From: an uncultured Lachnospiraceae bacterium
GTDB taxonomy: Bacteria; Bacillota; Clostridia; Lachnospirales; Lachnospiraceae
DNA: 64,000 nt
Direction: 5' to 3'
Assembly: GCA_945929965.1 (NCBI GenBank)
Contig: CAMEOT010000006.1
Span: forward strand, 1-64,000
Part shown: piece after piece, positions 57,251 to 62,870 of the stretch
How positions within the stretch are numbered: the stretch's first letter is position 1
Layout of the letters: each line of letters opens with the position of its first letter
Notes under the pieces: generated by a model
Told to the model about the DNA's origin: nothing
The model's input: the letters and a program-made list of their open reading frames with translations, nothing else
The model's database searches: none
Program-made: the position numbers and the translations under genes

Positions 57251-59755
57251 GTGAAAAAATCAGTAGCAGCCAGCGAGAAGCCGGTAAAGGCAAAAGAGTT
57301 CGACAAGGAGCTCTTCAAGAGAAGTGTGGAATATAATGTGCGCACCCTGTATCGTAAGAATCTGGAAGAGGCAGATGCACAGCAGATCTTCCAGGCAGTA
57401 TCTTATGCGATCAAGGACCGTATCGTAGAGAACTGGATGGAGACCCAGAAGGCATATGAGAAGGAAGACCCTAAGATGGTCTACTACATGTCCATGGAAT
57501 TTTTGATGGGAAGAGCACTGGGCAATAACCTCATCAATTTAAAGGCATACAAGCCCGTAGCGGAAGCTCTGGAAGAGCTGGGGCTGGATCTGAACCTGAT
57601 CGAGGACCAGGAGCCGGATGCAGCACTGGGTAACGGTGGACTGGGACGTCTGGCAGCATGTTTCCTGGATTCCCTGGCAACGCTGGGATATCCTGCATAC
57701 GGCTGCGGTATCCGTTATCGTTATGGTATGTTCAAGCAGGAGATCCGCGACGGTTATCAGGTAGAGGTTCCCGATAACTGGCTGATGAATGGCAATCCTT
57801 TTGAACTGCGTAGACCTGAGTATGCGAAAATGGTGAAATTCGGCGGCTATGTAAGTGTGCATACCGACGAGAATGGCAGAAATGTATTTACCCAGGAGGG
57901 TTATCAGTCTGTTAAGGCCATTCCTTTTGATTTTCCCATCGTGGGCTATGGCAACGGTATTGTAAACACCCTGCGTATCTGGGATGCGGAGCCCGTAGAG
58001 TGCTTCCAGCTGGATTCCTTTGATAAGGGTGATTACCAGAAGGCGGTAGAGCAGGAGAACCTGGCACGTAATATCGTAGAGGTTCTGTACCCCAACGACA
58101 ATCATTATGCAGGTAAGGAGCTGCGCCTGAAGCAGCAGTACTTCTTCATCTCCGCATCCGTACAGGAAGCAGTTGAGAAGTACATGAGAAAGCATGACGA
58201 TATCCATAAGTTCTATGAGAAGGTTACCTTCCAGCTGAACGATACCCATCCTACCGTAGCTATCGCAGAGTTGATGCGTGTGCTGATGGATGATTATTAT
58301 CTGACCTGGGAGGAAGCGTGGGAGATTACAACCAAGACCTGTGCTTACACTAACCATACCATTATGGCGGAAGCATTGGAGAAATGGCCCATCGAACTGT
58401 TCTCCAGACTGCTTCCCAGAATCTACCAGATCGTAGAAGAGATCAACCGCAGATTCATCATTGACATTCAGCAGAAGTACAGCAATGTACCCGGAGTGGA
58501 TGTACAGGAGAAGATCCGCAAGATGGCGATCATCTATGACGGACAGGTGAAGATGGCAAATATGGCAATCGTCTCCGGCTACTCTGTCAACGGTGTGGCA
58601 AGACTGCATACCGAGATCCTGGAGAAGCAGGAGCTGAAGGACTTCTATGAGATGTTCCCGGAGCGCTTCAATAATAAGACCAACGGTATCACCCAGAGAC
58701 GTTTCCTGCTGCATGCAAACCCGCTGTTAGCTGACTGGGTAACGGCTCATGTAGGTGACGACTGGATCACCGATCTGCCTCAGATCTCCCGCCTGAAGGT
58801 ATATGCGGATGACAAAAAGGCACAGCAGGAGTTCATGAACATCAAGTACCAGAACAAAGTACGTCTGGCAAAATACATTTTAGAGCACAACGGTATCGAA
58901 GTAGATCCCAGATCCATCTTCGATGTGCAGGTAAAGCGTCTGCATGAGTACAAGAGACAGCTGCTCAATATTCTGCATGTAATGCACCTGTATAATGAAT
59001 TGAAGGAGCATCCGGAACTGGATTTCTACCCCAGAACCTTTATTTTTGGTGCGAAGGCAGCAGCCGGCTACCGTAATGCGAAGCTGACCATCAAGCTGAT
59101 CAATTCCGTAGCGGATGTGGTAAATAACGATCCCGCTATCAACGGTAAGATCAAGGTCGTATTTATTGAGAACTACAATGTATCCAACGCAGAGATCATC
59201 TTCGCAGCAGCAGATGTCTCTGAGCAGATCTCTACCGCAAGTAAGGAAGCATCCGGTACCGGTAACATGAAGTTCATGCTGAACGGCGCCCTGACCCTGG
59301 GAACCATGGACGGCGCTAACGTGGAGATCGTAGAAGAGGTAGGCGAGGAGAATGCATTCATCTTCGGTCTGTCCGCACAGGAAGTTATCAATTATGAGAA
59401 CCATGGAGGATATGACCCCATGGAGATCTTCAACAATGATCAGGATGTCCGCAAGGTACTGATGCAGCTGATCAACGGAACCTTTGCACCGGGAGATCCC
59501 GAGCTGTTCCGCCCGCTGTACAATTCCCTGCTGAACACCCAGTGCACTGCGAAGGCAGACACCTACTTCATCCTCAAGGACTTCAAGTCCTACGCAGAGG
59601 CACAGAAGAGAGTGGAAGCCGCTTACCGCGACGAAGACAACTGGGCTAAGAGCGCTATCCTTAATGTGGCATGCTCCGGCAAGTTCACCTCTGACAGAAC
59701 TATACAGCAGTATGTGGATGAAATCTGGCACCTGGATAAAGTAGTGCTCAAATAA
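57251..59755 (+). CDS. glgP: Glycogen/alpha-glucan phosphorylase (GTG start)
   Basis: DAALGNGGLGRLAACFLDSLATL; EASGTGNMKFMLNGALTLGTMDGANVEI. Confidence 0.97.
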   Translation: MKKSVAASEKPVKAKEFDKELFKRSVEYNVRTLYRKNLEEADAQQIFQAVSYAIKDRIVENWMETQKAYEKEDPKMVYYMSMEFLMGRALGNNLINLKAYKPVAEALEELGLDLNLIEDQEPDAALGNGGLGRLAACFLDSLATLGYPAYGCGIRYRYGMFKQEIRDGYQVEVPDNWLMNGNPFELRRPEYAKMVKFGGYVSVHTDENGRNVFTQEGYQSVKAIPFDFPIVGYGNGIVNTLRIWDAEPVECFQLDSFDKGDYQKAVEQENLARNIVEVLYPNDNHYAGKELRLKQQYFFISASVQEAVEKYMRKHDDIHKFYEKVTFQLNDTHPTVAIAELMRVLMDDYYLTWEEAWEITTKTCAYTNHTIMAEALEKWPIELFSRLLPRIYQIVEEINRRFIIDIQQKYSNVPGVDVQEKIRKMAIIYDGQVKMANMAIVSGYSVNGVARLHTEILEKQELKDFYEMFPERFNNKTNGITQRRFLLHANPLLADWVTAHVGDDWITDLPQISRLKVYADDKKAQQEFMNIKYQNKVRLAKYILEHNGIEVDPRSIFDVQVKRLHEYKRQLLNILHVMHLYNELKEHPELDFYPRTFIFGAKAAAGYRNAKLTIKLINSVADVVNNDPAINGKIKVVFIENYNVSNAEIIFAAADVSEQISTASKEASGTGNMKFMLNGALTLGTMDGANVEIVEEVGEENAFIFGLSAQEVINYENHGGYDPMEIFNNDQDVRKVLMQLINGTFAPGDPELFRPLYNSLLNTQCTAKADTYFILKDFKSYAEAQKRVEAAYRDEDNWAKSAILNVACSGKFTSDRTIQQYVDEIWHLDKVVLK

Positions 59756-59800
59756 ATTGAGAGTTAATTAAGAAATGCTATCGAATCCCCGTAGCCCGCA

Positions 59801-59957
59801 TTGGGGCTAAGAACCGCAGACCCGCGTGTGCTTTAGCACGATTCGCTTACGGACGCAGACCGTAGCGGTACATAAGCGAGGTCAATACCCTCGCAATGCG
59901 TCCCTTGGGACGCTATGGTACCGACGGCTGCTTAGAGTCTGCTTGTCCTTACCCCAA
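59801..59957. repeat. 157-nt multibranched inverted-repeat element (structured ncRNA or MITE-like candidate)
   Basis: Imperfect 21-nt arms ttggggctaagaaccgcagac/gtctgcttgtccttaccccaa enclosing hairpins gtgctttagcac, cgcttacggacgcagaccgtagcg, gcgtcccttgggacgc. Confidence 0.65.
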
Positions 59958-60087
59958 CTGCAGGCTACTGGTTTCCACTAAAAAAGCCTTAAACTAATGA
60001 AAATGGTGGAAATTGAATAGAAAAAAGTTCTATAGAAGAAGCAATTCCTCTGTTTTAGATCTTTTCTGCAATTATGGAGGAAATTAT

Positions 60088-60549
60088 TTGCTCACAAAAC
60101 ATTAATTCCACTATTTTCTGTTATTCAATGGATTTTAGCGGAATCAGTAAACAGAACGCCCACGGCGGATGGAATGTCATGCCGCGATGTCTGTCGGAGG
60201 GTGTTGATATTTTCTTGAAAAGTGCTGATAGACAGGGGGAAAGCGGACACGATGTCCGCGTCAGCCGATCCGCGCCATGGATGGCGCGTGTAGGCGACCC
60301 CGTCATGATGAGAACCACTGTATCACTTTTCATTAGAAAATTCACACCCGGAGACGCGACATCAAGGCGTGATGTTCCGTTCACCGTGGGCGTTCGTGGA
60401 GTTTACGGCAACCCTACGTTACGAGCCATGCATTCAATTCATAAATGTGTCGCAAAGGACGCTCCACATTTATTTCATTGACGGCTGTCGAGTGTGTCCG
60501 TTGGACGCACGGTATAAAAATAGAACGAAATAACCTCTTGTGTGAGCAA
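60088..60549. repeat. Hairpin-rich non-coding segment bounded by TTGCTCAC/GTGAGCAA
   Basis: Internal hairpins gcggacacgatgtccgc, cgcgccatggatggcgcg, catcaaggcgtgatg, aaatgtg...cacattt, gtgtgtccgttggacgcac; no convincing CDS. Confidence 0.5.
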
Positions 60550-60609
60550 GCTCCCAATCACGGTTCTCATTTTGCCTATGCGCGGCTCATTGCCCGCGTA
60601 ACTTTCAAT

Positions 60610-62664
60610 TTAATCTCCGACACGATTCAGTGTCACATCATCCAAAGTTCCCCAACTATTCATATTACACTTATACCTTACTCCAATAGTCAGGGTGCCG
60701 TCGGTGACTTTGATTCCGGAGATAGTGGGATTCTGCCAGTCGGCATAGGTGGTGAGCATAAAGGGATCCGCCAGCACCATGTCATCTACGATTGAATACA
60801 ACTCCATGGAAGCATCCGCAGACAAATCCCCGCCCTGTGAGAAAGCGGACAGCTCATAAGTACCCGGTTCCAAATCGGTGAAGCTCTGCGCAATGGAGAA
60901 TTCCATATCGGAAGCTCCGGACCAGAAATGGAACGCTACTTCACCGCTGTGGGCATCCGCAGCCTTCACCTGATAGTCGGTGGGATCTGCATCCCCTGCG
61001 TAGGTTACTGTCCACATGGAGGTATCGGCATCTTCGAAGCTGGGATTCTGCACGTAATTCACCCGTTCTACCGTTACGGTAGCGGTAACCTCGCTGCCGT
61101 CATCCAGAGATCCTGTAACTGTGAAAGTACCCCCAATCTCAGTATCGATTGCAGCCACATCATCTGCATTCCAGGTAACGGAAACCTGCTCTTTGGAACG
61201 ATCATTATAGATGACACTTACTGTCTCCGGAAGCTCTGCTTCTGCACCGAGATTGCAGGATACCTCTACCGCGGGAACACTCTCTACTGTCAGGGGTGCC
61301 GTAGCACCGTATTTCAGATACTTAAAGACATTCAGAGAAGCCAGAGGATGTCCGGTGAAATCAAACATTGCCTGATTATCCCAGGAGCATCCGCCGTAAT
61401 ACTGTCCGGCATCTTTGGGATCGTAATCGGAAGCGTAGCTGCTTGCCCAACCACTGCCGTATTTTTCCCAGATAGCGGAATTGTCAGCATCTGCAGGACC
61501 TACCGGGATCCAGGTGCCTTCCCAGTAGAAGATACCTTCAGCACCGGCTTCATTGGCTGCCGCACAGACATCCCTTACTTCATTTGCCTGTCCCTGCACA
61601 CTGGCGGAATAGCCTTCTGCAAGATCGCCTGTTCCCTCCACACTGTTGGAGGATCCATCGCCGTCTTCTGCGGTATAGCAATAAGCATTTTCAGCGACAT
61701 ATACCTTTTTGTCATAAGTATCCCGGATATGGATAATTGCATTTTTTAGATCATCCATGGTCCCATGCCAGTAGGGATAGAAGGAGAGCCCAACAATATC
61801 GTAATCAATCTCTTTCACCTGCAGACCGGTCAGCAATGTATCCAGCTTCTTCATATCATCGATATTTGTATAGTGTACAGCTATGAGTATATCTTTGCCG
61901 GAATCCGCTGCTGCTTCCCGGACAGCCTTGCTGCCGGCGGTCAGAAGCTTTCTCACATTTGCCACATCCGTTTCACCGGACATACCATTGTTGATCTCAT
62001 TTCCAATCTGTACCATGCCCACATTGACGCCGGCTTCCAGAATCTGAGTGAGACTGTCCAGTGTGTAGTTGTAGAGAGCATCCGCTTTTTCTTCAATATT
62101 CATGCCTTGCCATGCCTTGGGAACGAATTGCTTCTTCGGATCCGCCCAAAAATCGGAATAATGGAAATCGATGCAGACCTTCATGCCATACTGCGTAGCA
62201 CGCTGACCCAGGGCAATTGCGGTTGCTACGTCGTTGTTACCGCCGCCGTAACCGTCACCGTTCTCATCATAGGGATCATTCCAGACACGGAGACGGATAT
62301 AGTTCACACCGGCCTGTGCCAGCGTCATAAATACATCCTGTTCTTCCCCGTCGAAATTATAATATTTCACGCCGCTGTTCTCCAGAGCCAGTACTGCAGA
62401 GGCGTCCATGCCCCGGTAAAAATCATCGGAAATGCCGTCGACCGGCTCCACATAGATGGTAGATTCCTCAGGTCCATCCGGCATGGGAAACGCAGTGATA
62501 TCGGTGACACCTGTCGAAGACGCACTCGCGGATTCGACTATGGTATCTGTGGTACCGTTGCCCTGACTCTGATCACCGCAGCCAGACAGACTGCCCATGA
62601 TCAGTCCTGCGCTGAGACATAGAGCCAACAGGCGTGTGTGTGAACGCTTTGTAAAATGATGCAT
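60610..62664 (-). CDS. Lipoprotein arabinogalactan endo-beta-1,4-galactanase, GH53, with C-terminal Ig-like and CBM-like domains
   Basis: Lipobox SGCGD; VNYIRLRVWNDPYDENGDGYGGGNNDVATAIALG; VGMVQIGNEINNGM; IVGLSFYPYWHGTM. Confidence 0.93.
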   Translation of the reverse strand: MHHFTKRSHTRLLALCLSAGLIMGSLSGCGDQSQGNGTTDTIVESASASSTGVTDITAFPMPDGPEESTIYVEPVDGISDDFYRGMDASAVLALENSGVKYYNFDGEEQDVFMTLAQAGVNYIRLRVWNDPYDENGDGYGGGNNDVATAIALGQRATQYGMKVCIDFHYSDFWADPKKQFVPKAWQGMNIEEKADALYNYTLDSLTQILEAGVNVGMVQIGNEINNGMSGETDVANVRKLLTAGSKAVREAAADSGKDILIAVHYTNIDDMKKLDTLLTGLQVKEIDYDIVGLSFYPYWHGTMDDLKNAIIHIRDTYDKKVYVAENAYCYTAEDGDGSSNSVEGTGDLAEGYSASVQGQANEVRDVCAAANEAGAEGIFYWEGTWIPVGPADADNSAIWEKYGSGWASSYASDYDPKDAGQYYGGCSWDNQAMFDFTGHPLASLNVFKYLKYGATAPLTVESVPAVEVSCNLGAEAELPETVSVIYNDRSKEQVSVTWNADDVAAIDTEIGGTFTVTGSLDDGSEVTATVTVERVNYVQNPSFEDADTSMWTVTYAGDADPTDYQVKAADAHSGEVAFHFWSGASDMEFSIAQSFTDLEPGTYELSAFSQGGDLSADASMELYSIVDDMVLADPFMLTTYADWQNPTISGIKVTDGTLTIGVRYKCNMNSWGTLDDVTLNRVGD

Positions 62665-62870
62665 AAGTAATCCTCCCGTGAAACTATAGCTGCACAACCG
62701 ATTGCGCACATATATTATAACACAGTATAGTGAAAATGAGACAAAAATGTAATAAAAACTGCGCAACAAAATAAAAGAAATATTGTGCAGAAAGAGCAGC
62801 GGTGCTGTATGCGCGGCTGCTCTTAAAATTATGCATGAATATGGATTTACGGTGTACCAGGACTGGAATC

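What the first reader, a model, noticed from the sequence alone, without database searches (positions are those of the whole stretch)
59801..59957. 157-nt multibranched element after glgP: long closing stem with three hairpins
Arms ttggggctaagaaccgcagac and gtctgcttgtccttaccccaa are near-complementary and enclose three hairpins (gtgctttagcac; cgcttacggacgcagaccgtagcg; gcgtcccttgggacgc). This cloverleaf-like layout is not explained by a coding gene or an ordinary terminator. It could be a structured ncRNA or a MITE-like mobile palindrome.
Basis: seen in the sequence. Interest (0 to 1): 0.65.

Follow-up and report, generated by a model that had tools for sequence, protein, structure and literature searches.

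The report
Modular hairpin repeat, flipped between species
The cloverleaf is one module of an 856-bp mobile-looking DNA repeat that fills the gap between two genes in a gut bacterium; related copies sit at the same chromosomal sites in a sister species but often turned round and refilled, and its core is a hairpin motif found in many genomes of one bacterial family and absent from the RNA family database.

Summary
In detail: the arms and hairpins are present, and the 181-nt stretch folds far better than shuffles on both strands (z -6.4 and -8.3). It is not a stand-alone RNA. It is module A of a composite repeat at 59755-60610, bounded by terminal inverted repeats and TA, filling the glgP/galactanase gap. 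Module order is A-B-C-D; module C contains the Rfam motif TwoAYGGAY. A same-genus closed genome (GAM79, AP018536.1) has 26 complete copies. Most of its sites are also occupied in this genome, but with different contents, and in opposite orientation at 9 of 11 scorable sites (sign test p = 0.065). Repeats within one genome resemble each other more than their counterparts at the same site. Module A recurs in 82 of 121 congeners and 13 genera of one family, in none of the sampled genomes of other families, and matches no Rfam family. Covariation is strong (23 of 31 pairs changed on both sides), but G-U pairs are rare and do not exceed A-C mismatches, pointing to DNA-level palindrome maintenance (template switching, conversion) rather than selection on one RNA strand. 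Best reading: a BOX-like composite MITE with concerted, invertible contents. No mobilising transposase was found; no function is shown.

The parts
59755..60610 (+). whole composite element, modules A-B-C-D, flanked by TA on both sides (59753-59754 and 60611-60612)
   Evidence: ends taAATTGAGAGTTA / TAACTTTCAATTta; single multibranched fold z -14; the same-site copy in G006 has its borders at the same TA
59755..59766 (+). left terminal inverted repeat; its first base completes the glgP stop codon TAA (59753-59755)
   Evidence: covariance model R1 hit 59791-59970, 123 bits (the window copy is one of the eight sequences the model was built from)
59968..60151 (+). module B: AT-rich palindromic module, optional
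   Evidence: 93-100% identical copies in G000 L228, L231, L235, L236
60152..60397 (+). module C: 38-nt inverted arms around TwoAYGGAY
60192..60356 (+). TwoAYGGAY (RF01731) match inside module C
   Evidence: 107.9 bits against a gathering score of 43
60398..60597 (+). module D: further palindromic module next to the right end, optional
60599..60610 (-). right terminal inverted repeat; completes the stop codon of the convergent galactanase-like gene (minus strand, 60610-60612)
57251..59755 (+). glgP (glycogen phosphorylase), left neighbour
60610..62769 (-). secreted arabinogalactan endo-galactanase-like gene, right neighbour, convergent
   Evidence: open reading frame; name by sequence recognition, no family search run here

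Best explanation
The cloverleaf is module A of a composite, non-coding, MITE-like DNA repeat (856 bp here). Shown: terminal inverted repeats AMTKGARAGTTAR next to TA; fixed module order A-(B)-C-(D) with modules optional; copies too short for a transposase gene; many dispersed copies; two species sharing most sites but with different contents and often opposite orientation; copies inside one genome more alike than copies at the same site; strong covariation that is almost purely Watson-Crick. Inferred: the element spread long ago by transposition at TA (TA borders suggest an IS630/Tc1-like transposase). Since then the sites have stayed put while the palindromic contents are exchanged between copies and turned round, by ectopic conversion and/or replication template switching between inverted repeats, which also keeps the arms perfectly complementary. 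Insertion at TA within a stop codon is tolerated because the element's first base restores TAA.
For: 33 matches to the cloverleaf stretch and 80 to the rest of the element in the own genome, mostly partial and many at contig ends; 44 end-sequence matches there against 14 for the reversed control pattern; end pairs in the closed genome G006. All but about five of the 52 borders of 26 G006 copies carry TA. Fixed module order. Site sharing and orientation: the element starts at or within a few bases of the same border in G000 at about 17 of 26 G006 sites; opposite at 9 (L121, L127, L128, L130, L131, L218, L219, L221, L222), same at 2 (L122, L125). Concerted evolution: the window against its same-site counterpart matches only 216 nt at 83.8%, against G000 copies 528 nt at 92.8% and 251 nt at 97.6%. 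Sites without the element: L123 and the left junction of L116, and a right-end remnant at L225. Pairing: 95.5% of cells paired, 23 of 31 pairs with double changes, 0 of 500 shuffles; WC 694, G-U 11, A-C 17. Precedent: template switching homogenises inverted-repeat arms and inverts spacers (PMC8604942) and is proposed to maintain hairpins (PMC8794818).
Against: No transposase with matching ends: the only IS630-type (DDE_3) gene in G006 has none within 3 mismatches, and G000 has no such gene. Known spacer inversions by template switching involve spacers of a few bases, whereas these are about 500 bp with 12-16 bp ends, so conversion or a recombinase may be needed. The orientation tally is small (p = 0.065). 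G000 is a draft that breaks at these repeats, and two loci (L230, L043) join flanks of different G006 sites, which could be rearrangement or misassembly. The TA target duplication is judged from palindromic borders and few clean unoccupied sites. Absence of a transposase gene in the copies was judged by length and reading, not by a family scan.
Confidence: 0.75

Rival explanations
1. Module A (and TwoAYGGAY) is a functional structured RNA, for instance a cis-acting leader or 3' end element, that happens to have been picked up by a mobile repeat.
For: Strong covariation; TwoAYGGAY is classed as a probable RNA (PMC2864571); in G135/G017/G131/G113, 34 of 53 module-A copies have a Shine-Dalgarno and start codon within 90 nt of a border, mostly 17-38 nt away, against 19 of 53 in a window 100 nt further out; sites are conserved between G135 and G017.
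Against: G-U pairs do not exceed A-C mismatches; both orientations occur in front of genes; in the window the element lies between convergent genes, not in a leader; no promoter signal beyond chance.
Confidence: 0.2
2. The flips come from a dedicated site-specific inversion system (inverton-like) acting on the terminal inverted repeats.
For: The same border with opposite contents at 9 of 11 scorable sites; inverted repeats at both ends.
Against: Contents also differ in module set and sequence type, so simple inversion is not enough; no invertase was sought or seen next to the copies; no promoter signal in this copy.
Confidence: 0.15
3. Independent insertions into preferred TA sites at gene ends, not inherited sites.
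For: Insertion at TA of stop codons is common; orientation would then be random.
Against: About 17 of 26 sites coincide to within a few bases; one site carries a remnant, implying an older copy.
Confidence: 0.1

Closest known systems
BOX elements of Streptococcus pneumoniae (PMC3049150)
   Same: composite modular repeats in fixed order, terminal inverted repeats paired in the fold, 67-637 bp, over-represented between convergent genes, slow transposition, strong predicted RNA folds
   Different: sequence similarity to BOX was not tested; modules here are distinct palindromes rather than tandem boxB copies; contents exchanged and flipped at fixed sites between species; contains TwoAYGGAY
RUP of S. 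pneumoniae and Correia elements of Neisseria (MITEs; RUP's IS630 link from PMC3049150, the TA target of both from general knowledge)
   Same: terminal inverted repeats, TA target, non-autonomous, many copies
   Different: several times longer and multibranched; no matching IS630 found in G000 or G006
TwoAYGGAY RNA (RF01731)
   Same: module C is a clear member
   Different: known as a candidate RNA of unknown function; here a module of a mobile-looking repeat with up to 30 copies per genome
Quasi-palindrome correction by template switching (PMC8604942, PMC8794818)
   Same: explains perfect arms, double changes without G-U steps, and spacer inversion
   Different: described for short inverted repeats with short spacers

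Membership tests
MITE (non-autonomous DNA transposon) | terminal inverted repeats | tested here: met
MITE (non-autonomous DNA transposon) | target-site duplication | tested here: inconclusive
   TA at all but about five borders of 26 G006 copies; few clean unoccupied sites to compare
MITE (non-autonomous DNA transposon) | short and without a transposase gene | tested here: inconclusive
   465-860 bp in most copies, too short for a transposase; one ~2 kb copy carries another ORF; judged by length and reading, no family scan of the copies
MITE (non-autonomous DNA transposon) | dispersed multiple copies | tested here: met
MITE (non-autonomous DNA transposon) | related autonomous partner with the same ends (usual, not obligatory) | tested here: inconclusive
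   only DDE_3 (IS630 type) sought: none in G000, one in G006 without matching ends; other transposase families not sought
BOX elements | composite modules in fixed order with optional inner modules | tested here: met
BOX elements | sequence homology to boxA/boxB/boxC | not tested
   no BOX sequence compared; only likeness of layout is claimed
TwoAYGGAY RF01731 | score above the curated gathering cut-off | tested here: met
   module C 107.9 bits against 43; module A does not match any Rfam family at gathering threshold
structured ncRNA | covariation of pairs | tested here: met
structured ncRNA | strand-specific pairing (G-U tolerated, A-C not) | tested here: not met
   (G-U 11, A-C 17); one search mixed by genome (G135+G017: 32 against 17; others equal or reversed except the few G000/G006 copies)
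structured ncRNA | stable transcript | not testable with these tools
   no RNA-seq
inverton | invertible DNA between inverted repeats | tested here: inconclusive
   opposite orientation between two species, not shown within a population
inverton | promoter inside and an invertase | tested here: inconclusive
   one promoter-like site against 1.9 expected; invertase not sought

The most novel reading that the evidence does not exclude
A family-wide class of DNA hairpin elements with conserved cores and copy-specific, nearly perfectly complementary arms, whose covariation is produced at the DNA level (template switching or ectopic conversion) and whose cassettes are exchanged and turned round at fixed chromosomal sites. 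TwoAYGGAY would be one such core and module A a second, unrecorded one, so covariation alone would not prove an RNA here.
Probability: 0.4. Interest if true: 0.75.

Novelty: new variant of a known kind. Interest (0 to 1): 0.6.

Why it matters
It places a published candidate RNA (TwoAYGGAY) inside a mobile-looking composite repeat, adds a second widespread core motif that Rfam lacks, and gives a natural case in which strong covariation carries almost no G-U pairs. That makes it directly testable whether DNA-level template switching can mimic the standard evidence for structured RNA. Flipped and refilled cassettes at shared sites are also a ready system for studying palindrome-driven recombination in gut bacteria.

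Tried and rejected
Autonomous partner: DDE_3 search in five genomes gave one hit without matching ends. Unoccupied site at glgP: 30 loci from the genus were examined, but only this genome and GAM79 have the galactanase gene next to glgP. 'Empty' module-A forms (L007, L010, L018) were first read as unoccupied sites and then rejected as likely slippage deletions between GGCTA or GGC repeats in the arms (sequence reading). Viral contigs: no exact core match. Unoccupied sites for the 209-bp module-A elements: all nine G135 sites queried are occupied in G017. Strand choice by folding energy gave no consistent answer. Arms captured from the target DNA: considered, not testable with the sites found. 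Literature for this repeat in the family: nothing found. One nucleotide BLAST of congener TwoAYGGAY loci with module C found nothing, so those loci were placed by their covariance-model coordinates.

Full report
What was checked.

It is part of something larger. The gap between glgP (stop at 59753-59755) and a convergent galactanase-like gene (stop at 60610-60612) is filled by one element, 59755-60610, with ends AATTGAGAGTTA / TAACTTTCAATT next to TA. The whole region folds as one multibranched structure (-340.7 kcal/mol, z -14). Its first and last bases complete the two stop codons as TAA. Inside are module A (the cloverleaf), B, C and D; C contains TwoAYGGAY at 107.9 bits.

Copies. The own genome (G000, 3.04 Mb draft) has many partial matches, often at contig ends, 44 end-sequence matches with up to one mismatch against 14 for the control pattern and 16 TwoAYGGAY. 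A closed genome of the same genus, Lachnospiraceae bacterium GAM79 (G006 matched to AP018536.1 by length and copies), has 30 TwoAYGGAY and 26 complete copies, mostly 465-752 bp and one of about 2 kb, with TA at nearly all borders. Order A-(B)-C-(D) is kept; modules are optional; module A has long and short forms.

Sites are shared, contents are not. Flanks of the G006 copies were compared with the G000 loci in hand. At about 17 of 26 sites G000 has an element starting at, or within a few bases of, the same border. At the 11 sites where the A end can be placed in both, orientation is opposite at 9 and the same at 2 (two-sided sign test 0.065). The window is one of the opposite ones: in G006 the C end adjoins glgP. 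The window matches its same-site counterpart over 216 nt at 83.8% but other G000 copies over 528 nt at 92.8% and 251 nt at 97.6%. So contents have been replaced or converted since the species split, not merely inverted. At L123, and at the left junction of L116, G000 lacks the element; at L225 it keeps a 12-nt remnant of the right end.

Module A beyond this genome. A covariance model from eight copies hit 82 of 121 congeners, often with ten or more copies; a core model hit 30 of 295 genomes of the order, all in the same family, 13 genera. No Rfam family matches it at gathering threshold. Elsewhere the core sits in copy-specific, nearly perfect arms. In four congeners many copies lie just upstream of a Shine-Dalgarno and start codon: 34 of 53 within 90 nt, typically 17-38 nt, against 19 of 53 in a window further out. 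All nine G135 sites queried are also occupied in G017.

RNA or DNA. Across 24 diverse cores, 95.5% of cells pair, 23 of 31 pairs show changes on both sides, and no shuffle reaches this. But Watson-Crick 694, G-U 11, A-C 17; in the larger set G-U exceeds A-C modestly in G135 and G017 and not in G131, G113 or the mixed group. For TwoAYGGAY groups G-U was 125 against A-C 56, with a structure call that favours G-U. Selection on one RNA strand should tolerate G-U far more than A-C. Near symmetry suggests that the palindrome is maintained at the DNA level. Selection on both strands, since copies lie in both orientations, is not excluded. No control RNA of the same genomes was counted.

Mechanism. 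Most likely an old TA-inserting MITE-like element whose sites stay put while contents turn over. Published template switching between inverted repeats both homogenises arms and inverts spacers (PMC8604942) and has been proposed to maintain hairpins (PMC8794818); here spacers are far longer, so ectopic conversion between copies is probably needed as well. This step is inferred. No transposase with matching ends was found.

Closest known: BOX elements of S. pneumoniae (modular, terminal repeats paired, convergent-gene bias; PMC3049150) and TA-inserting MITEs such as RUP. It works like these; sequence kinship was not tested. Verdict: a real, BOX-like composite repeat of a family not described in the papers searched, with an unrecorded widespread core motif; function unproven.

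Noticed in passing
window 60192-60356: TwoAYGGAY (RF01731), a published candidate RNA of unknown function, is a module of the same element; 16 copies here and 30 in GAM79.
   Followed up: yes
L177-L214 (G010, G008, G034, G007 and single copies in others): In other congeners TwoAYGGAY stands alone with a conserved core and copy-specific, nearly perfectly complementary outer arms.
   Followed up: partly
L267-L320: Module-A elements of about 209 bp in four congeners cluster just upstream of Shine-Dalgarno plus start codon, in both orientations.
   Followed up: partly
L216 640-2700 (G006 1805643-1807696): A TIR-bounded copy of about 2 kb carries an extra ORF on the minus strand that reads like a lipoprotein.
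   Followed up: no
G000 L230 and L043: Elements whose two flanks match two different GAM79 sites: recombination between copies or misassembly.
   Followed up: no
window 59828-59839 and 59898-59913: In module A these two hairpins are both present or both absent among copies, in two sequence backgrounds.
   Followed up: no
L133 left flank (G006): Tandem repeats of about 50 bp (aatttagtcaattaagccccg..gcggggcgtaatcatc).
   Followed up: no
L348 (G000 C21): Remnant of a right end (taactttccatta) at the site of GAM79 copy L225: a lost copy.
   Followed up: yes
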